Source: Dehalococcoidia bacterium (lineage in GTDB: Bacteria > Chloroflexota > Dehalococcoidia > UBA2979). Taken from it: 42,243 bases of DNA. The notes under the pieces are model-generated. The model did no database searches. It had not been told where the DNA came from and saw only the letters and a list, made by a program, of their open reading frames with translations. The DNA lies in NCBI GenBank assembly GCA_009692705.1, contig SHYR01000008.1, positions 1 to 42,243 on the forward strand, read 5' to 3'. Shown piece after piece: positions 10,832-30,080 of this stretch; positions within the stretch are counted from its first letter, which is position 1, and each line of letters opens with the position of its first letter. Made by a program: the position numbers and the translations under genes.

Positions 10832-12037
10832 CTAGCCCCGCGTGCCCTGCGCGATCTGGTAGAGCTTGCCTTCAGTCTTGATCGCTGGTGCGATCACCAT
10901 GCGCGCCGTGTGGAACTCGCGGATGGTGGTCGCGCCGCAGGTCGCCATCGAGGTGCGCAGCGCGCCGAAGAGGTTCTCGGTGCCGTCGGTGCGCGAGGTC
11001 GGCCCCATCAGCAGCTGCCGCAGCGAGTGCTGCTGGCCGACGTGCACGCGCACCCCGCGCGGCAGCTCGGCGTTCGGCGTCGCCATGCCCCAGTGGTAGC
11101 CACGGCCCGGCGCCTCGATGGCGCCCGCGAAGGGCGAGCCGATCATCACGGCGTCGGCGCCCGCGCAGATCGCCTTCGAGAGGTCGCCGCCGGTGCGGAT
11201 GCCGCCGTCGGTGATGATCGGGATGTAGCGGCCGGTGCGCTCATAAAACAGGTCGCGCGCGTAGGCGGTGTCGATGGTGGCGGTGATCTGCGGGATGCCG
11301 ATGCCCAGCACCTCGCGCGAGGTGCAGGCGGCGCCCGGTCCGACCCCGACCAGCACGCCGTAGATGCCGGTCTCCATCAGCTCCAGCGCAGCCTGCACGT
11401 CGACAGTGTTGCCGACGAGCACCGGCACGGGCGCGATCTGCTTCACTAGCTCGTCGAGCCGCAGCCCGCGCAGCGAGCGCGAGACGTGGCGCGCGGTGGT
11501 GACGGTGGACTGTACGACGAAATAGTCAACGCCGGCCTCGATCGCGAGCGGCGCGAACTTCTTGGTGTTCTGCGGCGTGGCGCTGACGGCGGCGACGCCA
11601 CCGCCCGCTTTGATCTGCTGGATGCGCTCCCCCACCAGCCGCAGGTCCACCGGCCGCTCGTAGACGCGCTGGATCACGGCGGTGGAGTCGCCCTGGCTGG
11701 CGGCCGCGATCTCCGCCAGCGCGTCATGGGGGTCCGCGTAGCGGGTCTGCAGGCCATCGAGGTTGAGCACAGCGATACCGCCGAGCGCGGAGAGCGCGAT
11801 CGCGAACGCCGGGTCGACCACCGCGTCCATCGCGGACGCCATGATCGGCAACGCGAAGCTGAGTTCTCCAAGCGTGAACGAGGGATCGACCATCTCCGGG
11901 TTGGTGGTGACGGCGCCCGGTACGATCGCCACGTCGTCGAACCCGTACGCCTGGTCGAGGCTCTTGCGCGCTGCGCTGCTATTCGCCGTGAGTGCGGCGA
12001 GCGACTGCGGCTGCGTCCGGACGTCTCCTGCTACCAC
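10832..12037 (-). CDS. GuaB3-family IMP dehydrogenase-related protein
   Basis: 401 aa, no CBS domain; [20 protein letters not shown] catalytic loop, [30 protein letters not shown]. Confidence 0.88.
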
Positions 12038-13179: not shown

Positions 13180-13237
13180 CGCGCATGCTCTCCGACTGCG
13201 GGGACCGTCCTCTTACCCCATGCTACGATGCCGCCCG

Positions 13238-14914
13238 ATGCCCGACAGCCCTCGCACGATCCTCGTCTGCGTTGCGTGGCCGTACGCGAACACCCCCCTG
13301 CACGCGGGACAGATCGCGGGCGCCTACCTGCCCGCCGACATCTTCGCGCGCTACCACCGCATGCGCGGCGATCGCGTGCTGATGGTCTCCGGCTCCGACG
13401 CCCACGGCACCCCGGTGACGCTCCGCGCCGAGCAGGAGGGCACGACGCCGCTTGCGATCTTCGAGCGCATGCACTCCTCGTTCGTCGACACGTTCGAGCG
13501 CCTCGGCATCTCCTTCGACATCTTCACCTCCACCAACACCGAGGACCACGTGGAGGTGACGCAGGACATCTTCGAACGCCTGCTCGAGCGCGACTACATC
13601 TACGAGGCGGAGCAGACGCTACTCTACGACCCAAAGGCGAACCGCTTTCTCCCCGACCGCTACGTCGAGGGCACCTGCCCCCACTGTGGCGACCCCGGCG
13701 CGCGCGGTGACCAGTGCGATCACTGCGGTCGCGCGCTGGACGCCACCGAGCTGCTCCAGCCGCGCTCGCGGCTCTCGGATGCGACGCCGGAGCCGCTGCC
13801 GACGAACCACTTTTTTCTGCGCCTGAGCGCGTTCAACGAGCGCCTGCGCGAGTGGGTGGAGCCGCAGGCGCACTGGCGGCCAGCGGTGCGCAACTTCACG
13901 CTCGGGCTGCTGCGCGAGGGGCTGCACGACCGCGCGATCACGCGCGATATCGAGTGGGGCGTGCCGATCCCGCTCGAGGGCTACGAGCAGAAGCGCATCT
14001 ACGTGTGGTTCGAGGCCGTGATTGGCTACCTCTCCGCGACCAAGGAGTGGGCGGAGCGCTCCGGCGACCCCTCGGCGTGGGAGGCATTCTGGCGCGACCC
14101 GGAGGCGCGCTCCTACTACTTCCAGGGCAAGGACAACATCACCTTTCACACCACGATCTGGCCGGCGATGCTGATGGGCTACGAGGGGCTCAACCTTCCC
14201 TACGATGTCCCGGCGAACCAGTACGTCACGATGTCCGGCTCGAAAGCCTCCTCCAGCCGCAACTGGGCGGTGTGGATGCCGGACTACCTCGAGCGCCACG
14301 ACCCCGACCCGCTGCGCTACACGCTCACCGCGATCATGCCCGAGACCTCCGACACCGACTTCACCTGGGCGGAACACCTGCGGCGCAACAACGATGAGCT
14401 GGTGGCGCGCTGGGGCAACCTCGTGCACCGCGTGCTCACGCTCACGCGCCGCCATTTCGATGCGCGCGTGCCGGAGCCGCCCGACGAGCTCGCCGCGAAC
14501 TCGCGCGAGCTGCTGGCGCGCCTCGACGCGGCGTTCGATGCGGTGGGCGCGGCGATCGAGCAGGTGCAGCTGCGTCACGCGCTCGGCGCGGCGTTCGCGG
14601 TCGCGCAAGCGGCGAACCGCTACCTCGACGAGCGCGCACCGTGGACGGCGGTGCGCACGGACCGCGCCTCGGCGGCGGAGACGCTGCACACGGCGATCAA
14701 CGTGGTGAGTGGGATCGCCACGCTGCTGCAGCCGTTCCTGCCCTTCACTTCCCCCGAGGCGTGGCGGCTGGCCGGCAACGCGGGCTCGATCGAGGCCGCC
14801 GGCTGGCGCCGCACGCCCGTCGCGGCCGGAACGCCGCTGCCGGAGCCCGCGCCGCTCTTCCGCAAGCTCGACGACTCGATCGTGGCCGAGGAAGAGGCGC
14901 GGCTCGGGCGGTGA
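13238..14914 (+). CDS. metG: Methionine--tRNA ligase
   Basis: HIGH-like PYANTPLHAGQ, CPHCG/CDHCG zinc pairs, KMSKS-like MSGSKASSSR; start chosen at MPDSPRTIL. Confidence 0.94.
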   Translation: MPDSPRTILVCVAWPYANTPLHAGQIAGAYLPADIFARYHRMRGDRVLMVSGSDAHGTPVTLRAEQEGTTPLAIFERMHSSFVDTFERLGISFDIFTSTNTEDHVEVTQDIFERLLERDYIYEAEQTLLYDPKANRFLPDRYVEGTCPHCGDPGARGDQCDHCGRALDATELLQPRSRLSDATPEPLPTNHFFLRLSAFNERLREWVEPQAHWRPAVRNFTLGLLREGLHDRAITRDIEWGVPIPLEGYEQKRIYVWFEAVIGYLSATKEWAERSGDPSAWEAFWRDPEARSYYFQGKDNITFHTTIWPAMLMGYEGLNLPYDVPANQYVTMSGSKASSSRNWAVWMPDYLERHDPDPLRYTLTAIMPETSDTDFTWAEHLRRNNDELVARWGNLVHRVLTLTRRHFDARVPEPPDELAANSRELLARLDAAFDAVGAAIEQVQLRHALGAAFAVAQAANRYLDERAPWTAVRTDRASAAETLHTAINVVSGIATLLQPFLPFTSPEAWRLAGNAGSIEAAGWRRTPVAAGTPLPEPAPLFRKLDDSIVAEEEARLGR

Positions 14915-14918
14915 TCCC

Positions 14919-15782
14919 GTGACGCCACCCGCCGCGGTCCCCCCTCCCCTCCTGCCGCTCGACGCCCCGCTCGTCGACGCGCACGCGCACATCTCGTCGC
15001 GGGAGTTCGACGACGACCGCTCCGCGGTGCTGGAGCGCGCGTGGGACGCCGGCCTGGTGGCGATCGTGGAAGCCGGCACCGACAGCGCATCGAGCGAGCG
15101 CGCGCTCGCGTCGGCGCGCGCGCAGCCGAGCATCCACGCCACCGCGGGCCTGCATCCGCACGACGCCAGCCGCCTGGAGGCCGAACGGGGGCCGCTGCGC
15201 GTGCTGCTGACTGGCGGCGGCTTCGCGGCCGTGGGCGAGATCGGGCTGGACTTTTACCGCGAGCTCTCGTCCCGCGCAGAGCAGTACGCCGCTCTGCGCT
15301 GGCAGCTCGCGCTCGCCCGCGAGCTGGTTCTGCCGGTGGTGATCCACGCCCGCGAGGCGGACGCGGAGTGCTATGCGGAGCTCACCGTCTGGGCGGCGCA
15401 TGCGGGCCGCTATCTCGGCCCCGGGCGCGAGATCGGGATGCTGCACTGCTTCGCGGGGGACCCGGAGCTGGCCGCGCGCTACATCGAGCTGGGGTTCCTG
15501 ATCTCGGTGCCGGGCACGGTCACCTACCCCGGCAGCGAGCGCGGCCGCGCGGTGGCGCGCATGCTCCCGCTTCCGGCTATGCTGGTGGAGACGGACTGCC
15601 CGTACCTGCCGCCGCAGCCATACCGCGGGCGGCGCAACGAGCCCGCGTACGTGCGGCGGACAGTGCAGGCGGTGGCCGAGCTGCGAGCGTGCAGCGCGGA
15701 GGAGGTGGCCCGGGCGACGGCGCAGAACGCCGCCCGCCTGTTCGGCTTCACCCTCCCCGCCAGCGTGACGGGGTCCCCATGA
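14919..15782 (+). CDS. TatD family DNase
   Basis: 287 aa, GTG start; LVDAHAHI, AVGEIGLDFYR, VIHAREA, LVETDCPYLPP motifs. Confidence 0.92.
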   Translation: MTPPAAVPPPLLPLDAPLVDAHAHISSREFDDDRSAVLERAWDAGLVAIVEAGTDSASSERALASARAQPSIHATAGLHPHDASRLEAERGPLRVLLTGGGFAAVGEIGLDFYRELSSRAEQYAALRWQLALARELVLPVVIHAREADAECYAELTVWAAHAGRYLGPGREIGMLHCFAGDPELAARYIELGFLISVPGTVTYPGSERGRAVARMLPLPAMLVETDCPYLPPQPYRGRRNEPAYVRRTVQAVAELRACSAEEVARATAQNAARLFGFTLPASVTGSP

Positions 15783-16951
15783 CGATCACTCAGCGCGACA
15801 TCGACCGACGCCTGCTCGGCGGCGTCTGTGCCCGCCTCGCGCGACGCTACGACTACGACGTGACCGGGGTGCGCGTCGCCACCGTGGCGCTCGCGCTGCT
15901 CACCGCCGGGCTGGGCGGCGTGGCGTACGTGGCGCTCTGGCTGCTGCTGCCGCCCGCCACAGCGCCCATCGCTCCCGCCGCGCCTGCACCTGCCGCGGCG
16001 CTGTACGGACCGGTGGCGGGCGATCTTCCGCGCGTCGACGAGGCGCTGCGCGCGCTGGCGGAGGTGAAGTCCCCGTGGCTGCGACAGATGATCGAGACGG
16101 TCGTGGGCGGCGGCGGGAAGCGCATGCGCCCCGCGATCGCGCTGCTGGCGGGCCGCTTCGGCAGCTACGACCTCGCGCTGCTGGTGCCGCTGGCGGCTAG
16201 CGTCGAGCTGCTGCACACGGCGACGCTGGTGCACGACGATGTGATCGACGGCGCGACGCAGCGGCGGGGCCAGCCGACGCCGTCTGCGCTGTTCGGCAAC
16301 GCCGCGAGCGTGATGCTCGGCGACTATCTGTTCGCGCATGCCGCCGACCTCGTGGCGCAAACCGGCAACGTGCGTGTGATCCGCAACTTCGCCGCGACGC
16401 TGCGGGTGATGGCCGGCGGCGAGCTGCAGCAGGACCTCTCTGCCTTCGAGTACTCTGAGGACGTGCAGCGCTATCTCGAGCGCATCGGCGGCAAGACGGC
16501 GTCGCTGTTTGCGACGGCGGCGGAGGGCGGGGCAATCATAACGGGGGCGACGGAGGCCGAGGTGGCGGCGCTGCGGCGCTACGGCGAATCGCTCGGCACG
16601 GCGTTCCAGGTGGTCGACGATGTGCTGGACCTCACCGGCGACCAGCAGGAGATGGGCAAGCCCGTCGGCTCCGACCTGCGCGAGGGGACGCTGACGCTGC
16701 CCGCCCTGCTCTACCTGCAGGACGCGCCCGCCGATAACCCGGTGAAGCGGGCCTTCGACGACCCTTCAGACGAGGAACTGCTGGAGCGCGCGATCGCCGC
16801 GATCCGCGCCTCCGACGCGCTGCCAGGCGCGATGGTGGCGGCGCGCGGCTTTGGCGACCAGGCGCGCGAGGCGCTGGCAGCGCTGCCGCCGGGTGAGGCG
16901 CGCACGGCGCTTGAGGGCCTGATCGATTACGTTCTGGAGCGCCGCAGCTAG
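15779..16951 (+). CDS. PspC-domain/polyprenyl diphosphate synthase fusion protein
   Basis: 390 aa in one frame. N-terminal RDIDRRLLGGVCARLARRYDYDVTGVRVATVALALLTAGLGGVAYVALWLLLP is PspC-like. C-terminal LVHDDVIDGATQRRGQPT and FQVVDDVLDLTGDQQEMGKPVGSDLREGTLTLP are the two Asp-rich motifs of trans-prenyltransferases. ATGA overlap with the upstream gene. Confidence 0.9.
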   Translation: MTITQRDIDRRLLGGVCARLARRYDYDVTGVRVATVALALLTAGLGGVAYVALWLLLPPATAPIAPAAPAPAAALYGPVAGDLPRVDEALRALAEVKSPWLRQMIETVVGGGGKRMRPAIALLAGRFGSYDLALLVPLAASVELLHTATLVHDDVIDGATQRRGQPTPSALFGNAASVMLGDYLFAHAADLVAQTGNVRVIRNFAATLRVMAGGELQQDLSAFEYSEDVQRYLERIGGKTASLFATAAEGGAIITGATEAEVAALRRYGESLGTAFQVVDDVLDLTGDQQEMGKPVGSDLREGTLTLPALLYLQDAPADNPVKRAFDDPSDEELLERAIAAIRASDALPGAMVAARGFGDQAREALAALPPGEARTALEGLIDYVLERRS

Positions 16952-20524: not shown

Positions 20525-21031
20525 TCAGGCGCGGTCCTCGTGCCCACGCCAGGCGTGTACGCGGGCGCCCAGCTCCAGCTCCTCGCGCGCGCGCATCGCC
20601 GCGTCCTCAGCGGCCGTCTCGTGGTCGTAGCCGAGCAGGTGCAGCAGGCCGTGCAGCGCGAGATGCGCTAGCTCCTCGTCGAGCGCCAGCCCCGCGCGAC
20701 GCGCTTGCCGCCGCGCAGTGGAGACCGAGACCGCGATGTCGCCGAGGTAGCGCGCGCCGCCTTCGGCCGGGTCGCCGCCGGGGAACGGCTCGCCCTCCGC
20801 GCCCTCCTCGCCTTCCGCGGTGGGGAACGACAGCACGTCGGTCGGCTCGTCGAGGCCGCGGTGCTCGCGGTTCAGGCGCCGCAGCAGGGCGTCGCCCGCG
20901 AGCACGAGCGTGAGCGAGGCGTCCCCCGCGCCCTCGGCCGCCAGCACGCGTTCCAGCAGCGCGCGCAGCGGCTCCGGGGCGAGGCCCCGCGTGGCCGGCC
21001 CCTGGAGCTCGATGGCGATTTCGGGTGGCAC
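20525..21031 (-). CDS. ybeY: Endoribonuclease YbeY
   Basis: HLALHGLLHLLGYDHE metal-binding motif; TDVLSFP; GTG start at VPPEIAIEL. Confidence 0.92.
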   Translation of the reverse strand: MPPEIAIELQGPATRGLAPEPLRALLERVLAAEGAGDASLTLVLAGDALLRRLNREHRGLDEPTDVLSFPTAEGEEGAEGEPFPGGDPAEGGARYLGDIAVSVSTARRQARRAGLALDEELAHLALHGLLHLLGYDHETAAEDAAMRAREELELGARVHAWRGHEDRA

Positions 21032-21063
21032 CGGTGTCGGGTCGGAGCGCCCGCGCCGCCGGG

Positions 21064-22527
21064 CTACTGCAGCGCCTCGGCGGCGCGCTGCGCGGCCGAG
21101 ATCAGCGGCGCGGGCACGAGGCCGAAGAACAGCACGCCGGCGGCCGCGAGCGTGAGCAGGCCCTGCACCGGCAGCGCCGCCGTTATGGAGGTGCCCTCCA
21201 GCGGCTCGTCGAGCACGATCGTGCGCGCCCAGCGCAGGTAGTAAAAGGCGGAGACGGCGGTGTTCAGCACCGCGACCACGACCAGCCAGACGAGCCACGG
21301 CTCGCCCGCCTGCACGGCGCCGTTGAAGATGTAGAGCTTGGCGAGGAAGCCCGCGGTGGGCGGGATGCCGGTGAGCGAGAGCAGGCAGAGCACGAGGATC
21401 GAGGCGAGCCATGGCGAGCGCCGCAGCAGCCCGGCGTAGTCCCGCATTTCGTCGGAGCCGATGCGCTCGGAGACCGCGATCACGGCGATGAACACGCCGA
21501 GGTTGGCGGCGGTATAGGTGCCGAGGAAGAACAGCACGCCGGAGGGCCCGATCGTGCTCCCGGCGGCGACTGCCGCCAGCCCGACCGCAATGTTGCCCGC
21601 CTGCGCGATCGAGGAATAGGCGAGCAGCCGCTTCACGTCGGTCTGGAGGATCGCGGCGGTGTTGCCGAAGGTCATGGAGACGCCCGCGACCACGGCGAAC
21701 AGCGCCGACCAGTCGTGGGAGATGATCGTGCCGCCGCCGCCGAGCCCGGCGTAGAAGACGCGCAGCACGACGGCGAAGGCCGCGGCCTTTGAGGCGACGG
21801 CGAGGAAGCTGGTCACAGGCGTCGGCGCGCCCTGGTACACGTCCGGCACCCAGGCGTGGAAGGGCGCGGTCGCCATCTTGAAGCCGAGACCAGCCGCCAC
21901 CAGCACGAACGCGAGGATCAGCGCCAGCCGCGTCTCCTCGTGCCCCGCGGCGACGTAGGCGGCGATGCCGGGCAGCGCGGTGGTGCCGGCGAGCCCGAAC
22001 AGCAGCGCGAAGCCGTACAGCAGCACCGCCGCCGAGACCGCGCCCGTCAGCAGGTACTTTAATCCCGCCTCCGACGAGCGCGCGTCGCGGCCGATCCCCG
22101 CGAGCACGAACTGCGCGATCGCGGTGGTCTCGAGGGCGATGAAGACCGAGACGAGGTCATTCGCCTGCGTGAGCAGCACCATCGCCCCGGTGGCGACCAG
22201 CAGCAGCGCATAGAACTCGGCGGCGTTGTCGCTGCGGCGCGCGAACTCGGTAGCGGCGACCGTCACCGCCGCGGCGACCGCGATCAGCAGGAACGCGAAG
22301 AAGAGCGCGAAGCGATCCATCACCACCGCGCCGTCGAAGGCCGTCCCCGCCGACCCGGTGAGCGCGTGCCAGAGCGTGTAGCCGAAGGCGGCCGCGAGCG
22401 TGAGCAGCGCGAGCGCGAGCACCGGCGCTCGGCGCGGCTGCACGAGGTCCCAGGTCAGCAGCGCACCAGCGCCGCCGAACAGCACGACGACGGGGCCGAT
22501 GAGGTGGAACTGGTCCCAGGCGCTCAT
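21064..22527 (-). CDS. nuoN: NADH-quinone oxidoreductase subunit N
   Basis: 487 aa multi-TM antiporter-like subunit; MTFGNTAAILQTDVKRLLAYSSIAQAG. Confidence 0.93.
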   Translation of the reverse strand: MSAWDQFHLIGPVVVLFGGAGALLTWDLVQPRRAPVLALALLTLAAAFGYTLWHALTGSAGTAFDGAVVMDRFALFFAFLLIAVAAAVTVAATEFARRSDNAAEFYALLLVATGAMVLLTQANDLVSVFIALETTAIAQFVLAGIGRDARSSEAGLKYLLTGAVSAAVLLYGFALLFGLAGTTALPGIAAYVAAGHEETRLALILAFVLVAAGLGFKMATAPFHAWVPDVYQGAPTPVTSFLAVASKAAAFAVVLRVFYAGLGGGGTIISHDWSALFAVVAGVSMTFGNTAAILQTDVKRLLAYSSIAQAGNIAVGLAAVAAGSTIGPSGVLFFLGTYTAANLGVFIAVIAVSERIGSDEMRDYAGLLRRSPWLASILVLCLLSLTGIPPTAGFLAKLYIFNGAVQAGEPWLVWLVVVAVLNTAVSAFYYLRWARTIVLDEPLEGTSITAALPVQGLLTLAAAGVLFFGLVPAPLISAAQRAAEALQ

Positions 22528-23996
22528 TACCCGGCCCCCACGATCGCCGCGATCGGCGCCACGCCGCTCTCGACGGCGGTAGTGAGCAGCGCCGGGTAGA
22601 CGCCGACGGCGACGATCGCCAGCACCATCCCCGCCATCACGGTGCGCTCCCACCATGCGGTGGCGTCGGTGAGCTGCGCCCAGCGCGCGGCCGGCGGCCC
22701 GGTGAAGACGCGCTGCAGGGCCCACAGGATGTAGCCGGCCGCGAGCACGACGCCGAACACGGAGGTGATCGTCGCGGCCGGGTGCGCGTCGAGCGCGCCG
22801 AGGAAGACCGTGATCTCGGCGACGAACCCGCTCAGCCCGGGCAGGCCGAGCGCGGCGAGCCCGGCGACGATCGTCACGGTCCCGAGCACCGGGAGGCGAT
22901 GCAGCAAGCCGCTCAGCTCTGGGAGCTGGCGCGTGTGCGTGCGGTCGTAGATCAGCCCCACGGTGATGAAGAGCAGGCCCGTGATCGTGCCGTGCGTGAA
23001 CATCTGCAGCGCCGCGCCGGAGAGGCCCACGGCTCCCATCGTCGCCACGCCGAGCAGCACGTAGCCCATGTGCGAGACCGACGAGTACGCGATCAGGCGC
23101 TTCAGGTCGCGCTGCTGGAGCGTGAGGATCGCGCCGTAGACCACCGACACCGCCGCGATCGCGGCGAGCAGCACACGGAAGTCACGTGCCTCACCGGGTA
23201 GGATCGGCAGCGCGATGCGCAGGATGCCGTAGCCACCCATCTTCAGCAGCACGCCGGCCAGCAGCACGGAGACCGCCGTGGGGGCGTCGGTGTGGGCGTC
23301 GGGCAGCCAGGTGTGGAACGGCACCACCGGCAGCTTGACGAGAAAGGCGGCCATCACCGCCCAGAACACCAGCGACAGCGGCACCAGCGCCTGCTGCGGC
23401 GGTTGGGCGGTGAGCACGGCGATGTCGAAGCTGCCGCCGGCGAGGCCGAGCACGAGGAAGCCGACGAGCATGAAGGCGGAGCCGACGATCGTGAACAGCA
23501 CGAACTTCATCGCGCTGTACTCCTTGCGGCCCGTGCCCCAGATGCTGATCAGCAGGTACATCGGTAGCAGCTCCAGCTCCCAGAAGAGGAAGAACTGGAT
23601 CAGATCCAGCGACATGAATACGCCGCCCACCGCCGACTCGAGCAGCAGCAGCCACGCGTAGTACTCGCGCGGGCGCAGCTCGACGCGCCACGAGACCAAC
23701 ACCGAGGCCAGCGACAGCAGCCCGGTCAGCAGCACCATCGGCGCCGACAGGCCGTCGACGCCGAGCGCGTACTGCACGGTGAAGCCGGACTGGTGCGTAT
23801 TGATCCAGGTGAAGCGGTCCACGAACTGGTAGCCGGCGATGTCTGGATCGAAGCGCACGAAGATCAGCACCGAGAGCGCGAAGGCCAGCGACGAGAAGAT
23901 CAACGCGATCCACTTCGCGCGCGCCTCGTCCGCGCGGCGCGTGATCGCGAGCAGAGCGGCGCCGGTCGCCGGCAGCAGCAGGAACAGCGTCAGCAT
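22527..23996 (-). CDS. nuoM: NADH-quinone oxidoreductase subunit M
   Basis: 489 aa; PVVPFHTWLPDAHTDAPTAVSVLLAGVLLKMGGYG; LIAYSSVSHMGYVLLG. Confidence 0.95.
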   Translation of the reverse strand: MLTLFLLLPATGAALLAITRRADEARAKWIALIFSSLAFALSVLIFVRFDPDIAGYQFVDRFTWINTHQSGFTVQYALGVDGLSAPMVLLTGLLSLASVLVSWRVELRPREYYAWLLLLESAVGGVFMSLDLIQFFLFWELELLPMYLLISIWGTGRKEYSAMKFVLFTIVGSAFMLVGFLVLGLAGGSFDIAVLTAQPPQQALVPLSLVFWAVMAAFLVKLPVVPFHTWLPDAHTDAPTAVSVLLAGVLLKMGGYGILRIALPILPGEARDFRVLLAAIAAVSVVYGAILTLQQRDLKRLIAYSSVSHMGYVLLGVATMGAVGLSGAALQMFTHGTITGLLFITVGLIYDRTHTRQLPELSGLLHRLPVLGTVTIVAGLAALGLPGLSGFVAEITVFLGALDAHPAATITSVFGVVLAAGYILWALQRVFTGPPAARWAQLTDATAWWERTVMAGMVLAIVAVGVYPALLTTAVESGVAPIAAIVGAG

Positions 23997-24005
23997 CGCG
24001 CTCCC

Positions 24006-25937
24006 CTACCGCTCCAGCACGTTACCGCTGAGCACGAAGATCGCCACCGCCGCCACGATCACGCCGAGCATGAACATCGACGTGTAGGCCTGCAGTTGCC
24101 CGGCCTCGGAGCGCCGCAGCGCGTCGCCTGCCAGGCGGGTAGCACGCCCCACCTCGTTGGCGAGGCGGTCGACGAGCTGGGTGTCGATCAGCACCAGCGC
24201 GCGGCCGATCACGCCGTTGAGCAGCCCGCGTACCACCACGGTCTCGGCGAGGTCGTCGAGGTAGTACTTGCGCTCCACGATCCGCGGCAGCGGTCCGAGC
24301 CGCGAGCGGATCAGCTCCGCGGCCGGCCGGCGGTAGAGGTAGATCGCGGTCGCCAGCCCGATGCCACCGAGCGTGAACAGCGTCGAGGCCGCGACCACCA
24401 CGGCGTCGACCTCAATCTCGAAGGTGCGCAGCCCGGCGGGCAGCGCACCTTCCGCCAGCGTGCCGAAGCCGCCGCCGAGGTTCACCCAGCCGGCCGCGAC
24501 GGCGGGCACGGTGAGGATCGCCAGCGGCACCCACATCGTGCGTGGCGACTCGTGCGGAGCGCCGGCATGGCCGTCGCCGTGGCCCGGCGCGGGCGCCTCG
24601 CCGCCGCGGTACGCGCCGAAGAACGTGAGGTAGACGGCGCGGAACATGTAGAGCGCGGTCATCCCCGCCACCGCCACGCCGGCCACGAAGAGCAGGCGGT
24701 TGTGATGGAGCGCGTCGAGCAGGATCTCGTCCTTGCTCCAGAAGCCCGCCAGCGGAAAGACGCCGGCCAGCGAGAGCGAGCCGATCACGAAGCTGGCGAA
24801 GGTGACCGGCATCGCGAGGCGCAGCCCGCCCATGCGCCGCAGGTCGAAGCTGTTCGTGGCGTGGTTCACGGAGCCGGCGCCGAGGAACAGCATCGCCTTG
24901 AAGAACGCGTGCGTGAACAGGTGGAAGATCGCCGCCACGTACCCGCCCAGCCCCAGCGCCATCACCATGTAGCCGAGCTGCGAGATCGTCGAGTACGCCA
25001 GCACGCGCTTGATGTCCGTCGCCGCCAGCCCCATCGAGGCGGCCAGCAGTGCGGTGAACCCGCCGGTGTACGCCACCACGTCGCGCACCTCGGCGGGGGC
25101 GGCCTCGAAGGCGGGAAAGAAGCGCGCGATCAGGTAGACGCCCGCGACCACCATCGTGGCGGCGTGGATCAGCGCGGAGACGGGGGTGGGGCCCTCCATC
25201 GCGTCCGGCAGCCAGATGTGCAGCGGGAACTGCGCCGACTTCCCCACCGCCCCGGCGAGCAGGCCGAGCGTGAACCCGGTGAGCACCGCCGCGGAGAGTG
25301 TCGGCGCCAGCGCGTTGATGGCGGCGATGTCGAACTCGCCGGTCTTGCTCCAGATCAGCAGCAGCCCGACCAGGAACCCGAAGTCACCGAAGCGCGTGAC
25401 GATGAACGCCTTTTTCGCCGCCGCCGCCGCCGCCGGCCGGTGGAACCAGAACCCGATCAGCAGGTACGACGAAAGGCCCACCAACTCCCAGTGCACGAAG
25501 AGCTGCAGCAGGCTCGACGACAGCACCAGCCCGAGCATCGCCGCGGTGAACAGCGACATGTAGGCGAAGTAGCGCGCGTAGCCATGGTCCCCGCGCATGT
25601 AGCCGGTCGAGTAGACCTGCACCAGCAGCGAGACGCTGGTGACCACCACCAGCATGATCGCGGTCAGGCCGTCGAGGCGGACGCCCACCGGCACTACGAG
25701 GTTGAACAGCGACACCCAGTTGTGCGGCGCGATGTCGAGCGCCTCGCCGTCGACCGCGAGCGAGCTGTCGAGCGCCCACAGCGCCAGCAGCCAGGACACG
25801 CCGACCGCGAGCACGGTCATCCGCCCCGCGTCGAGCGGCCGGCGGCTGCCGATGAGCAGGGTCGCGACCGCGAACGAGAGCAGCGGGGCGAAGTAGATCG
25901 CCCACAGCGCAGCCTCGGGGATCGTCGGTAGCAGCAT
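24006..25937 (-). CDS. nuoL: NADH-quinone oxidoreductase subunit L
   Basis: 643 aa; QFPLHIWLPDAMEGPTPVSALIHAATMVVAGVYL; DIKRVLAYSTISQLGYMVMALG. Confidence 0.95.
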   Translation of the reverse strand: MLLPTIPEAALWAIYFAPLLSFAVATLLIGSRRPLDAGRMTVLAVGVSWLLALWALDSSLAVDGEALDIAPHNWVSLFNLVVPVGVRLDGLTAIMLVVVTSVSLLVQVYSTGYMRGDHGYARYFAYMSLFTAAMLGLVLSSSLLQLFVHWELVGLSSYLLIGFWFHRPAAAAAAKKAFIVTRFGDFGFLVGLLLIWSKTGEFDIAAINALAPTLSAAVLTGFTLGLLAGAVGKSAQFPLHIWLPDAMEGPTPVSALIHAATMVVAGVYLIARFFPAFEAAPAEVRDVVAYTGGFTALLAASMGLAATDIKRVLAYSTISQLGYMVMALGLGGYVAAIFHLFTHAFFKAMLFLGAGSVNHATNSFDLRRMGGLRLAMPVTFASFVIGSLSLAGVFPLAGFWSKDEILLDALHHNRLLFVAGVAVAGMTALYMFRAVYLTFFGAYRGGEAPAPGHGDGHAGAPHESPRTMWVPLAILTVPAVAAGWVNLGGGFGTLAEGALPAGLRTFEIEVDAVVVAASTLFTLGGIGLATAIYLYRRPAAELIRSRLGPLPRIVERKYYLDDLAETVVVRGLLNGVIGRALVLIDTQLVDRLANEVGRATRLAGDALRRSEAGQLQAYTSMFMLGVIVAAVAIFVLSGNVLER

Positions 25938-25965
25938 CAGTGGCTGGCGGGGGCGGCGGTGGACA

Positions 25966-26154
25966 TCAGATCTTGTTCAGCACCTCGCGCGCCACGTGCG
26001 TCTTGCCGTCTGGCACCCAGATCTCGCGGGGCAGTTGCATCGAAGCCACCTCGAGCGGGGGCACCACGCGCACCGACAGCGCCTCGGCGAAGAACAGCTC
26101 CTTCCAGATCGCGGCGGCATAGCCGTCCGGGACGTCCATGAACTTCACCCACAT
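25966..26154 (-). CDS. Small protein (62 aa) inserted between nuoK and nuoL; weakly DUF2007-like
   Basis: MWVKFMDVPDGYAAAIWKELFFAEALSVRVVPPLEVASMQLPREIWVPDGKTHVAREVLNKI*; co-directional with the operon. Confidence 0.6.
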   Translation of the reverse strand: MWVKFMDVPDGYAAAIWKELFFAEALSVRVVPPLEVASMQLPREIWVPDGKTHVAREVLNKI

Positions 26155-26168
26155 CGCGTTCCCCCGCC

Positions 26169-26510
26169 CTACCAGCGCATCAGGCTGATGCGGTCGAGAT
26201 CGACGGTCTCGCGCCGGCGGTAGACCAGCACCGCCATCGCGAGTGCGACCGCGGCCTCCGCCGCGGCCACCGTGAGCACGAAGACCACAAACGCGTGCCC
26301 GGCGAGCGGCTCCGTGCCGCCCGCGAAGGCGCCGAAGCGCGAGAACGCCAACAGCGCGAGGTTCACGCCGTTGAGCATCAATTCGACGCCCATCAGCACC
26401 GCGATCGCGTTGCGCTTGGAGAGCGCGACCGCGATGCCGATTCCGAAAACCACCCCCGACAGCGCAAGGTAGTGCGCCAGCGTCACCGTCAGCGTCTCCG
26501 GCAGGCTCAC
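26169..26510 (-). CDS. nuoK: NADH-quinone oxidoreductase subunit K
   Basis: 113 aa; RNAIAVLMGVELMLNGVNL; AAAEAAVALAMAVLVYRR. Confidence 0.93.
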   Translation of the reverse strand: MSLPETLTVTLAHYLALSGVVFGIGIAVALSKRNAIAVLMGVELMLNGVNLALLAFSRFGAFAGGTEPLAGHAFVVFVLTVAAAEAAVALAMAVLVYRRRETVDLDRISLMRW

Positions 26511-27019
26511 GAGCGGTCCTCCCGCACCAGCACGATCGCGCCGAGCAGCGCGGCGAGCAGCAGCACCGACGCCATCTCGAACGCCAGCAGGTAGGGCCCG
26601 AGCAGCGCGTCGCCAATGCCGCGCACGGTGTCGGCGAACGAACGTGCGTCCAGCGCCTCGCCGGCGACCTGCGGCCAGTCCACGTTGACGGCGGTGTAGC
26701 CGACGACGGCGGCGAACGCGGCGCCCAGCGCCACGCCCGGCAGCACGAACAGCGAGTTGGCGTTGTCGCGTGCGGCGAGCGGCGTGAGCATGACCGCGAA
26801 CACCATCAGGATCGAGACCGCCCCAGCGTAGATCAGCATCTGCGCGACCGCGATGAAGTCGGCGGAGAGCGTGATGAACAGCCCCGCCATGCCGAGGAAC
26901 GACGCCACCAGGAACACCACGGCGTGGATCAGGTTGCGCGACAGGAAGACCGCCAGCGCGCTCCCGACCGTGAGCGCGGACAGCACCCAGAACGCGGCGA
27001 CGACGCCCGGGGAGTCCAC
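26507..27019 (-). CDS. nuoJ: NADH-quinone oxidoreductase subunit J
   Basis: 170 aa; SRNLIHAVVFLVASFLGMAGLFITLSADFIAVAQMLIYAGAVSILMVFAVML. Confidence 0.93.
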   Translation of the reverse strand: MDSPGVVAAFWVLSALTVGSALAVFLSRNLIHAVVFLVASFLGMAGLFITLSADFIAVAQMLIYAGAVSILMVFAVMLTPLAARDNANSLFVLPGVALGAAFAAVVGYTAVNVDWPQVAGEALDARSFADTVRGIGDALLGPYLLAFEMASVLLLAALLGAIVLVREDRS

Positions 27020-27022
27020 CGT

Positions 27023-28471
27023 CTACGCCCCGCTCGCGCTGTCAGGGGTCGCCTCGCGCTGCAGGCGTTGCGCGGCGAGCAGCCCGCCGACGGCGGTGGT
27101 GAGCCGCGGGCGCAGCAGCCGCTCGCGCTGCGGCCGGTAGCCCAGCGCGCGTGTCCACGCGCGCGCGGCAACGATAGTGAAGCCGAGGTTGAAGAGCGTG
27201 ATCAGGCCGAGCGAGACCACGCCCGCCACCTCCCAGCGGGCGGCGATCGAGCTCTCCACGGCCACTACGAAGGTGTTCAGGATCGACAGCGGGATCAGGT
27301 ACTTCCAGGCGAAGGCCATCAGCTGGTCGAGGCGGAAGCGTGGCAGCGTGCCTCGCAGCCAGATGAACAGGAAGTAGACCGCGCTCACTTTCACCGCGAA
27401 GATCGCATAGGGTGGCACCCATTCCTCCAGCCCGAACGCGGACCAGCCACCGAGGAACATCGTGGTGACGAGGGCGGCGACCGCGGTGGCGTTGCCCATC
27501 TCGACGGCGTAGTAGAGCCCGAACTTCATGCCCGAGTACTCGGTGTGGAATCCGGCGATGATCTCCGACTCCGCCTCCGCGATGTCGTTGGGCGTGCGGT
27601 TCAACTCCGCGGTGGAGGCGAAGAAGAATGTGAACAGTGCCAGCGGGAGCATCGGCGCCAGCCAGAGGTTGTGGTCCGCCTGCCATTCGACGATCCCGCC
27701 GAGGCTCATCGAGCCGGTGATCAGCACCACCGGCAGCAGCGCGATGCTCTGCGGGATCTCGTAGGAGATCATCATCGCGATCGTGCGCATCGCGCCCAGC
27801 AGCGCGTAGTGGTTGTTGGACGACCACCCCGCCATGAAGATCGCGAGCGTGGAGAGCGAGCTGACCGCGATCACGTAGAGCACGCCGACGTTGAGGTCGA
27901 GGTAGATCATGCGCGGCGCCCAGGGCAGCGCGCCCATCACCAGCATCAGCGGGATGAACACCAGCAGCGGCGGCAGGTAGTACATCAGCCGGTCCGCGCC
28001 CCGCGGGATGATCGTCTCCTTCTGGATCAACTTGATCGCATCGGCCACCGGCTGCAGCAGGCCGAACGGCCCCACGCGGTTCGGTCCGCGCCGGATCTGC
28101 ATGCGCGCCAGCACCCGCCGTTCCACCCACACCAGCACCAGCAGCACGAGACCCACGAAGCCGAGGATGCCGGTGGCGCCGATCAGCGCGCTCGCCACGT
28201 AGGAGACCGCCGGGTCGAAGCGCTCGTCCAGCCGTCCGCGCAGGTGCGCCATCGCGATGCCGAGGTCGCGGAGGTCGTACCAGCGGCCATCGAGCACACC
28301 GCTGACCACGACCACGCCGATCGCGATGCTCACCGCCACCAGCACCAGCGCCGCGAGCGCACCGGCGACCCGCAGCCCGCGCAGGCGCGGCACGGCACGC
28401 GCACGCACGCCGATCGGGAACGACGCTGGCCCCATGGCTCGCAGCGCCTGCCACGCCGCGAAGCGGCTCAC
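27023..28471 (-). CDS. nuoH: NADH-quinone oxidoreductase subunit H
   Basis: 482 aa, GTG start; [69 protein letters not shown]. Confidence 0.94.
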
Positions 28472-29571
28472 CGGTCGATCTCCCCCACCACGATGTCGAT
28501 CGAGCCCAGCGCGACGATCGCGTCCGGCAAGGAGGCGCCAACCGCCATCTCCCTCAGCAGCGTGAGGTTGATCAGGGAGGGCGCGCGGATGTGGAAGCGG
28601 TACGGCGCCGGGCCTCCGTCCGAGACCAGGTAGAAGCCGAGCTCCCCGCGCGGGCCCTCGACGCGCGCGTACGCCTCCCCCGGCTCGGGCCGCAGCGCCA
28701 GCGGGATGTCGGTCTTGTGCGCGCCGGGCGGCAGGCCGTCGAGCGCCTGGCGCACGATGCCGACGGACTGGCGCACCTCCTCCATGCGCACCATGAAGCG
28801 GTCGTAGGCGTCGCCGGCGCGGCCGACCGGCACCGCGAAGTCGAAGCGGTCGTAGCCGCAGTAGGGCTCCGCCTTGCGCAGGTCCCACGGCACGCCGGAG
28901 CCGCGCAGCATCGGGCCTGCGAGCGAGGCGTTGATCGCATCGGCCGCCGATATCACGCCGACGTTGCGCGTGCGCGCCAGGAAGATCTCGTTGTCCACCA
29001 GCAGCTCCGTGTACTCCGCGATGCGCGCCGGCAGCTCGTCGAGCAGCGCGCTCGCCGCCGGGAAGAACTCCGGCGGCGGGTCGAAGGCCACGCCGCCGAT
29101 GCGCATGTAGTTCGTGGTCAGGCGCGCGCCGCAGGTCATCTCGAAGAGGTCGAGAATCTTTTCGCGCTCGCGCCACATGTACAGCAGCGGCGTCTGCCAC
29201 GCCCCGGCGTCGCTCACCAGCTGGCCGTTTGCCATCGCGTGGCTCGCGATGCGCTGCAACTCCGCGAAGATCACGCGCAGGTAGGAGGCGCGCTCGGGCA
29301 CCTCGACCCCCGCCAGTTGCTCGACGGCGAGGCAGTAGCCGAGGTTGCCCGACATCGCGGCGAGGTAGTCGGCACGATCGGTGAAGGGGATGTTCTGCGT
29401 GTACGTGCGCTCCTCGGCGAGCTTCTCCATCGAGCGGTGAAGGTAGCCCACGATCATGTCGATGTCCCGGATGCGCTCGCCGTCCATCACTACGCGCACG
29501 CGGAACACGCCGTGCGTGGAGGGGTGCTGCGGACCGATGTTGAGCACATATGGTTCGCTGGCGGCGGTCAT
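28468..29571 (-). CDS. nuoD: NADH-quinone oxidoreductase subunit D
   Basis: 367 aa; LNIGPQHPSTHGVFRVRVVMDGE; YLHRSMEKLAEERTYTQNIPFTDRADYLAAM. Confidence 0.95.
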   Translation of the reverse strand: MTAASEPYVLNIGPQHPSTHGVFRVRVVMDGERIRDIDMIVGYLHRSMEKLAEERTYTQNIPFTDRADYLAAMSGNLGYCLAVEQLAGVEVPERASYLRVIFAELQRIASHAMANGQLVSDAGAWQTPLLYMWREREKILDLFEMTCGARLTTNYMRIGGVAFDPPPEFFPAASALLDELPARIAEYTELLVDNEIFLARTRNVGVISAADAINASLAGPMLRGSGVPWDLRKAEPYCGYDRFDFAVPVGRAGDAYDRFMVRMEEVRQSVGIVRQALDGLPPGAHKTDIPLALRPEPGEAYARVEGPRGELGFYLVSDGGPAPYRFHIRAPSLINLTLLREMAVGASLPDAIVALGSIDIVVGEIDR

Positions 29572-30080
29572 CGCGCCTGCTTCCCCGGCTCCTCGAATGG
29601 GAACCGCGGCAGGCCGGGGTGGTGCCCCGCGATCTGGAGGAAGTTCTTGCGCAGCGGATGGCCGGGGAAGCCCTCCCACAGGAAGAGCCGCCGCAGATCC
29701 GGGTGGCCCTCGAAGTGGATCCCCATCAGGTCGTAGACCTCGCGCTCCTGCAGCAGCGCGCCGCGGTACACGCCGTATACGCTCGGCAGCGACGGCTGCT
29801 CGCGGTCCAGCACCGCCTTCACCACGATCAGGTGGTTCTGGTCCAGTGATTGCAGGTGGTAGACCAGCTCGAAGCGGTCGTAGCGGTCGACGCTGCACAG
29901 GCTCGAGAGCTGGGCGGCGTCCAGCGCGGGGTCGTCGTGGAGCCAGCGCAGCACCTCCGCCACGCGCGGCGCGGCCACCTCCACCCACTCGTCGGTCGCG
30001 CCCGCCACGGCGTCCGGCATCGCCGCGCGCAGTCGCTGCGCGACCTCCCGGCCGTCCAGCTGGCGTGGACCGCGCGGCAA
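29568..30080 (-). CDS. nuoC: NADH-quinone oxidoreductase subunit C
   Basis: 170 aa, TTG start; QEREVYDLMGIHFEGHPDLRRLFLWEGFPGHPLRKNF. Confidence 0.93.
   Translation of the reverse strand: MPRGPRQLDGREVAQRLRAAMPDAVAGATDEWVEVAAPRVAEVLRWLHDDPALDAAQLSSLCSVDRYDRFELVYHLQSLDQNHLIVVKAVLDREQPSLPSVYGVYRGALLQEREVYDLMGIHFEGHPDLRRLFLWEGFPGHPLRKNFLQIAGHHPGLPRFPFEEPGKQAR

What the first reader, a model, noticed from the sequence alone, without database searches (positions are those of the whole stretch)
15779..16951. PspC domain fused to a polyprenyl diphosphate synthase
Seen: one uninterrupted 390-codon frame, ATGA-coupled to tatD, joins an N-terminal PspC-like ~60 aa (RDIDRRLLGGVCARLARRYDYDVTGVRVATVALALLTAGLGGVAYVALWLLLP) via a Pro/Ala linker to a full trans-prenyltransferase with both Asp-rich motifs. 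Known: PspC proteins are membrane stress-response components; polyprenyl synthases are normally soluble and make quinone or undecaprenyl precursors. Inference: membrane-tethered prenyl chain synthesis possibly coupled to envelope stress. I do not know of a described system with this architecture.
Basis: partly seen in the sequence, partly recalled or inferred. Interest (0 to 1): 0.72.

Follow-up and report, generated by a model that had tools for sequence, protein, structure and literature searches.

The report
Membrane-anchored quinone-tail synthase with PspC domain
In one family of uncultured Chloroflexota bacteria, the enzyme that builds the long isoprenoid tail of a respiratory quinone has a membrane-binding PspC domain fused to its front; the fusion is real, old and kept by selection, but it most likely just holds the enzyme at the membrane where its greasy product is used.

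Summary
Window 15779-16951 is one open frame of 390 codons, with a PspC domain at residues 6-59 (Pfam 4.7e-14) and a complete long-chain trans-polyprenyl diphosphate synthase at about residues 75-390 (2.2e-64). It starts by ATGA overlap at the tatD stop codon. The same fusion occurs in eight genomes of five genera of one family of Chloroflexota; I found it nowhere else. The eight fused PspC domains form one clade (98/98), but the synthase tree needs at least three changes of state: the simplest reading is one origin and repeated loss. PspC evolves under purifying selection, while the linker is mostly unconstrained.

The genome encodes MenD, MenH, MenA, MenC and MenE, a separate UppS, and one divergent second synthase. 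The fusion therefore most likely makes the menaquinone side chain.

The link to envelope stress is not supported: PspA was found in 1 of 27 family genomes searched, and in only one of the eight fusion carriers. I favour PspC as a membrane anchor that brings the synthase to MenA. Topology is the open problem: charge bias would place the synthase outside, so the hydrophobic segment probably forms a kinked hairpin. No description of this architecture was found in the held literature.

The parts
15779..16951 (+). PspC-polyprenyl diphosphate synthase fusion gene, 390 aa plus stop
15794..15955 (+). PspC domain (residues 6-59)
   Evidence: Pfam PF04024 E 4.7e-14; NCBIfam TIGR02978 1.3e-8, below its cut-off
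15860..15946 (+). Predicted long hydrophobic helix (residues 28-56) with a central Ala-Gly motif
   Evidence: AlphaFold2 helix H28-56, low confidence; KD19 maximum 2.01
15956..16000 (+). Pro/Ala linker (residues 60-74), variable in length and sequence among relatives
16001..16948 (+). Long-chain trans-polyprenyl diphosphate synthase part (residues 75-390)
   Evidence: Pfam PF00348 E 2.2e-64 over residues 99-340; PDB relatives 3mzv, 4jxn, 9k99
16235..16249 (+). First Asp-rich motif DDVID (residues 153-157)
16616..16630 (+). Second Asp-rich motif DDVLD (residues 280-284)
14709..15782 (+). tatD-like gene (mechanical ORF; the TatD domain begins at its residue 89) immediately upstream; its stop overlaps the fusion start (ATGA)
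   Evidence: PF01026 E 1.4e-71
13220..14914 (+). metG, methionyl-tRNA synthetase, upstream of tatD on the same strand
   Evidence: PF09334 E 1.8e-145

Best explanation
The gene encodes a menaquinone side-chain synthase that carries its own membrane anchor. The C-terminal part is an all-trans polyprenyl diphosphate synthase that extends an allylic diphosphate with isopentenyl diphosphate to a long chain. The N-terminal PspC domain inserts into the cytoplasmic face of the inner membrane and, through a flexible linker, holds the catalytic domain at the membrane surface. There the very hydrophobic product can leave the enzyme into the lipid phase and be used by the integral membrane enzyme MenA. 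Shown here: the fusion, its domain families, its conservation and selection, and the presence of menaquinone genes in the same genome. Inferred: the membrane location, a topology with both ends in the cytoplasm, the product length, and delivery to MenA.
For: Both domains exceed family cut-offs and the frame is intact. Eight genomes in five genera keep the fusion, with invariant PspC positions G14 G15 V16 C17 A21 R23 V31 R32 A43 G44 Y50 A52 W54 P58. dN is below dS in the PspC part in all five pairs tested (dN/dS about 0.15-0.33 in the four unsaturated pairs), whereas the linker keeps only 5-38% identity in four of the five pairs and its dN exceeds dS in one. The PspC domains form one clade, 98/98. 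The synthase groups with known long-chain enzymes: decaprenyl 3mzv, octaprenyl 4jxn, solanesyl 9k99, and the small residue Ala148, five before the first Asp-rich motif, is invariant as in long-chain enzymes (interpretation from own knowledge). The same genome has menD, menH, menA, menC and menE matches in one cluster, one other, divergent synthase, and a separate UppS. Complex I genes lie downstream in the window. PspA was not found in G000 nor in 25 of the 26 other family genomes searched, which argues for PspC as an anchor and not a Psp relay.
Against: No experiment shows membrane location or product. Twenty-one family relatives whose DNA was read have the same enzyme without PspC, so the anchor is dispensable for the enzyme. 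A single-pass helix with the Arg-rich N-terminus inside would put the synthase outside the cell, where it has no substrates; the linkers carry no net positive charge, so the positive-inside rule does not favour the required topology. AlphaFold2 confidence in the PspC part is low. The genome is 77% complete, so another long-chain synthase could be missing.
Confidence: 0.62

Rival explanations
1. PspC acts as a sensor. It responds to membrane stress, curvature or potential and changes the activity or chain length of the attached synthase, so that quinone tail synthesis is tuned to the state of the membrane.
For: PspC is conserved at its signature positions and under purifying selection. E. coli PspC has been proposed to change topology in response to membrane state (PMC3068692). 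PspC is fused to signalling domains elsewhere (PMC11237479).
Against: PspA was not found in nearly all family genomes searched. The linker is variable in length and mostly unconstrained, which suits a tether better than a signal relay. Several sublineages lack PspC with no visible replacement.
Confidence: 0.13
2. The PspC part mainly promotes self-association or recruits another membrane protein (for example MenA), forming a quinone synthesis complex; membrane binding is a by-product.
For: Synthases of this family work as dimers (own knowledge), and PspC interacts with other Psp proteins in E. coli, in part through its membrane region (PMC3068692). MenA is encoded in the genome.
Against: MenA is in a different gene cluster and no direct evidence of contact exists. 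Variable presence among relatives argues against an obligate complex.
Confidence: 0.15
3. The fusion is a neutral accident of gene joining, kept by chance with no function for PspC.
For: It is missing in most relatives and was probably lost several times.
Against: PspC is under purifying selection while the neighbouring linker mostly is not, and the eight copies form one old clade spanning five genera.
Confidence: 0.06
4. The architecture is an assembly or annotation artefact.
For: The source genome is an incomplete, fragmented assembly (58 contigs, 77% complete).
Against: Eight assembled genomes in five genera show the same in-frame fusion after tatD.
Confidence: 0.01

Closest known systems
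Long-chain all-trans polyprenyl diphosphate synthases (IspB octaprenyl, solanesyl and decaprenyl synthases; PF00348)
   Same: Full-length homology, both Asp-rich motifs, same fold (TM-score up to 0.94 over the target), role inferred in quinone tail synthesis
   Different: Known members lack an N-terminal PspC domain (own knowledge; none of the PDB relatives aligns before residue 71); here about 75 extra residues with a hydrophobic segment precede the enzyme
PspC domain proteins (PF04024)
   Same: Signature GGVCxGxA, conserved Arg, hydrophobic stretch ending in WxxxP
   Different: Classical PspC acts with PspA and PspB; catalogued fusions are with signalling or membrane domains, not with a lipid-biosynthetic enzyme; PspA was not found in nearly all of these genomes
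Heptaprenyl diphosphate synthase HepS/HepT of Bacillus (menaquinone-7 tail)
   Same: Synthase part matches HepT (TIGR02748, 2.4e-69, below its cut-off); inferred pathway role is the same
   Different: Bacillus uses a separate component I (HepS); here the extra part is a PspC domain in the same chain, and no component I was looked for

Membership tests
Polyprenyl synthetase (PF00348), long-chain trans type | Match above the curated family cut-off over most of the domain | tested here: met
   217.5 bits against cut-off 27, profile 2-249 of 251
Polyprenyl synthetase (PF00348), long-chain trans type | Two Asp-rich motifs | tested here: met
   DDVID 153-157 and DDVLD 280-284; their Asp residues are invariant or nearly so across 30 aligned homologues
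Polyprenyl synthetase (PF00348), long-chain trans type | Long-chain product (C35-C50) | not testable with these tools
   Best relatives by sequence and fold are long-chain enzymes but no NCBIfam equivalog cut-off was reached; needs an assay
PspC domain (PF04024) | Match above the curated family cut-off over the full domain | tested here: met
   52.4 bits against cut-off 25, profile 5-57 of 58
Classical PspC of the phage shock system (TIGR02978 equivalog) | Score above the equivalog cut-off | tested here: not met
   34.7 bits against cut-off 104
Classical PspC of the phage shock system (TIGR02978 equivalog) | PspA encoded in the same genome | tested here: not met
   No PF04012 match in G000; among 27 family genomes only G013 has one; G000 is 77% complete
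Menaquinone side-chain synthase | Menaquinone pathway present in the genome | tested here: met
   MenD, MenH and MenA above equivalog cut-offs; MenE and MenC matches below theirs, in the same cluster
Menaquinone side-chain synthase | No other long-chain synthase candidate in the genome | tested here: inconclusive
   One other PF00348 gene, divergent, chain length unknown; genome incomplete

The most novel reading that the evidence does not exclude
The PspC part senses membrane state and directly controls the flux or chain length of quinone tail synthesis, making this a one-protein link between envelope condition and respiratory quinone supply that works without PspA.
Probability: 0.12. Interest if true: 0.72.

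Novelty: new variant of a known kind. Interest (0 to 1): 0.42.

Why it matters
Long-chain polyprenyl synthases make products that hardly dissolve in water, and how these reach membrane enzymes such as MenA is poorly settled (own knowledge). A natural fusion to a membrane domain, with close relatives that lack it, is a ready comparison set for asking whether membrane tethering changes product release, chain length or quinone yield. It also extends PspC from stress signalling to a biosynthetic enzyme, and it could serve as a natural anchor for menaquinone engineering.

Tried and rejected
Artefact of assembly or frame: rejected by seven further genomes. Undecaprenyl synthesis: rejected as the main role because a separate UppS is present. 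Separate PspC gene next to an unfused synthase in relatives: none was seen; the stand-alone PspC matches lie on other contigs. Internal start giving a soluble form: candidate start codons in the linker differ between genomes and are absent in two of eight, so there is no conserved internal start. Fusions outside the family: none among 80 synthase loci from public genomes other than L065, which is evidently the already counted G017, nor among 17 further long-frame PspC loci fetched by hand; this was not exhaustive outside the class. The first PspC tree contained one mis-extracted row (L064) that broke the clade; the rebuilt tree gives one clade. Amphipathicity of the first helix: no consistent signal. 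Literature searches for the combination or for a membrane-anchored synthase gave nothing relevant.

Full report
Observation. The frame 15779-16951 on the + strand is open throughout and encodes 390 residues. Pfam places PspC at residues 6-59 (4.7e-14) and polyprenyl_synt at 99-340 (2.2e-64), both above their curated cut-offs. The start codon overlaps the stop of the upstream tatD-like gene (ATGA). metG precedes tatD on the same strand, and recO follows on the other strand.

Distribution. Searching 99 related genomes with the protein found the long-chain synthase in 36 of 44 genomes of the same family by my count of the table. I read the DNA of 29 of these family loci: eight have PspC fused in frame and 21 do not; in the latter the synthase has only a short N-terminal tail. 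The eight are G000 and G001, G002 and G017, G007 and G021, G013, and G025, from five genera. A profile of the fused PspC (A2) run over 393 genomes of the class gives these eight at 93-120 bits; the next match, 77.5 bits, is a stand-alone PspC elsewhere in the window's own genome. Over 400 genomes of the phylum nothing outside this family scored above 55 bits. Seventeen further loci with PspC in long open frames hold no synthase. Outside the class this sampling is not exhaustive.

History. The eight fused PspC domains form one clade against 51 stand-alone PspC domains, support 98/98 (an earlier run with one mis-extracted row gave a broken group). On the tree of the synthase part the fused state needs at least three changes, forced by well supported branches, and fused members sit near the base of subclades. 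One origin in the family followed by losses fits both trees; transfer of the N-terminal part by recombination is not excluded.

Selection. In five pairs of genomes PspC keeps 71-80% identity with dN below dS. The linker keeps 5-38% in four of the five pairs (80% in the closest pair) and has dN above dS in one. Linker length varies widely, from about 15 residues in the window to about 70 in G013. The pattern is that of two constrained domains joined by a free tether.

Pathway. The genome (77% complete) has MenD, MenH and MenA above their NCBIfam cut-offs, and MenE and MenC matches below theirs, in one cluster. A single other PF00348 gene is divergent and carries a different first motif (DDIED). 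UppS, the cis enzyme for the cell wall carrier, is separate. Synthase relatives with solved structures are decaprenyl, octaprenyl and solanesyl synthases. Hence the product is most likely the menaquinone tail. Chain length itself was not tested.

Structure and topology. AlphaFold2 gives a confident synthase fold (240 of 390 residues at pLDDT 90 or more) and a low-confidence PspC part with helices 5-24 and 28-56, followed by a disordered linker. The hydrophobic stretch runs over about residues 28-58 with a conserved central Ala-Gly. The N-terminal part is Arg-rich while the linkers are neutral or acidic. For a single-pass helix the positive-inside rule would export the synthase, which would cut an enzyme off from its cytosolic substrate IPP. 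A hairpin or monotopic insertion with both ends in the cytoplasm is therefore inferred. This is compatible with published uncertainty about PspC: predictors disagree for E. coli PspC and a switchable topology has been proposed (PMC3068692), and a 2024 survey describes two membrane helices, the first cryptic (PMC11237479).

Stress link. PspA (PF04012) was found in 1 of 27 family genomes searched, G013, and in none of the other seven fusion carriers. Together with absence of PspC from the same enzyme in sister lineages, this speaks against a classical Psp response and for a simple anchoring role. A PspA-independent sensing role is not excluded.

Novelty. The survey of PSP architectures contains no mention of prenyl or isoprenoid in its main text, and full-text searches for the combination returned nothing relevant. 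Both domains are well known; the combination appears undescribed and, as far as sampled, confined to one family. I rate it a new variant of a known kind.

Noticed in passing
L001 (G000:C16) and L043-L056: Stand-alone PspC proteins of this family are often followed by a long Ala/Glu/Arg-rich helix-like tail (for example ELHELGDRLAETARGLAERAREAAEEIAEIAELARRV in G000), although PspA was not found in nearly all of these genomes; what PspC does there without PspA is unclear.
   Followed up: partly
window 20528-29988, - strand: Complex I-type genes (Proton_antipo_M proteins, NADHdh, Complex1_49kDa) lie convergent to the metG-tatD-fusion genes; with the men cluster this supports a quinone-based respiratory chain.
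   Followed up: partly
window 10835-12037, - strand: IMP dehydrogenase/GMP reductase-type protein between prmC and metG.
   Followed up: no
L004, L005 (G002, G017), first 60 codons of the fusion: In this genus the fused PspC lacks the usual RD-(I/V)-(D/E) start and three residues before GGVC, and sits on a long branch (1.54) in the PspC tree, suggesting relaxed or changed use of the domain.
   Followed up: no
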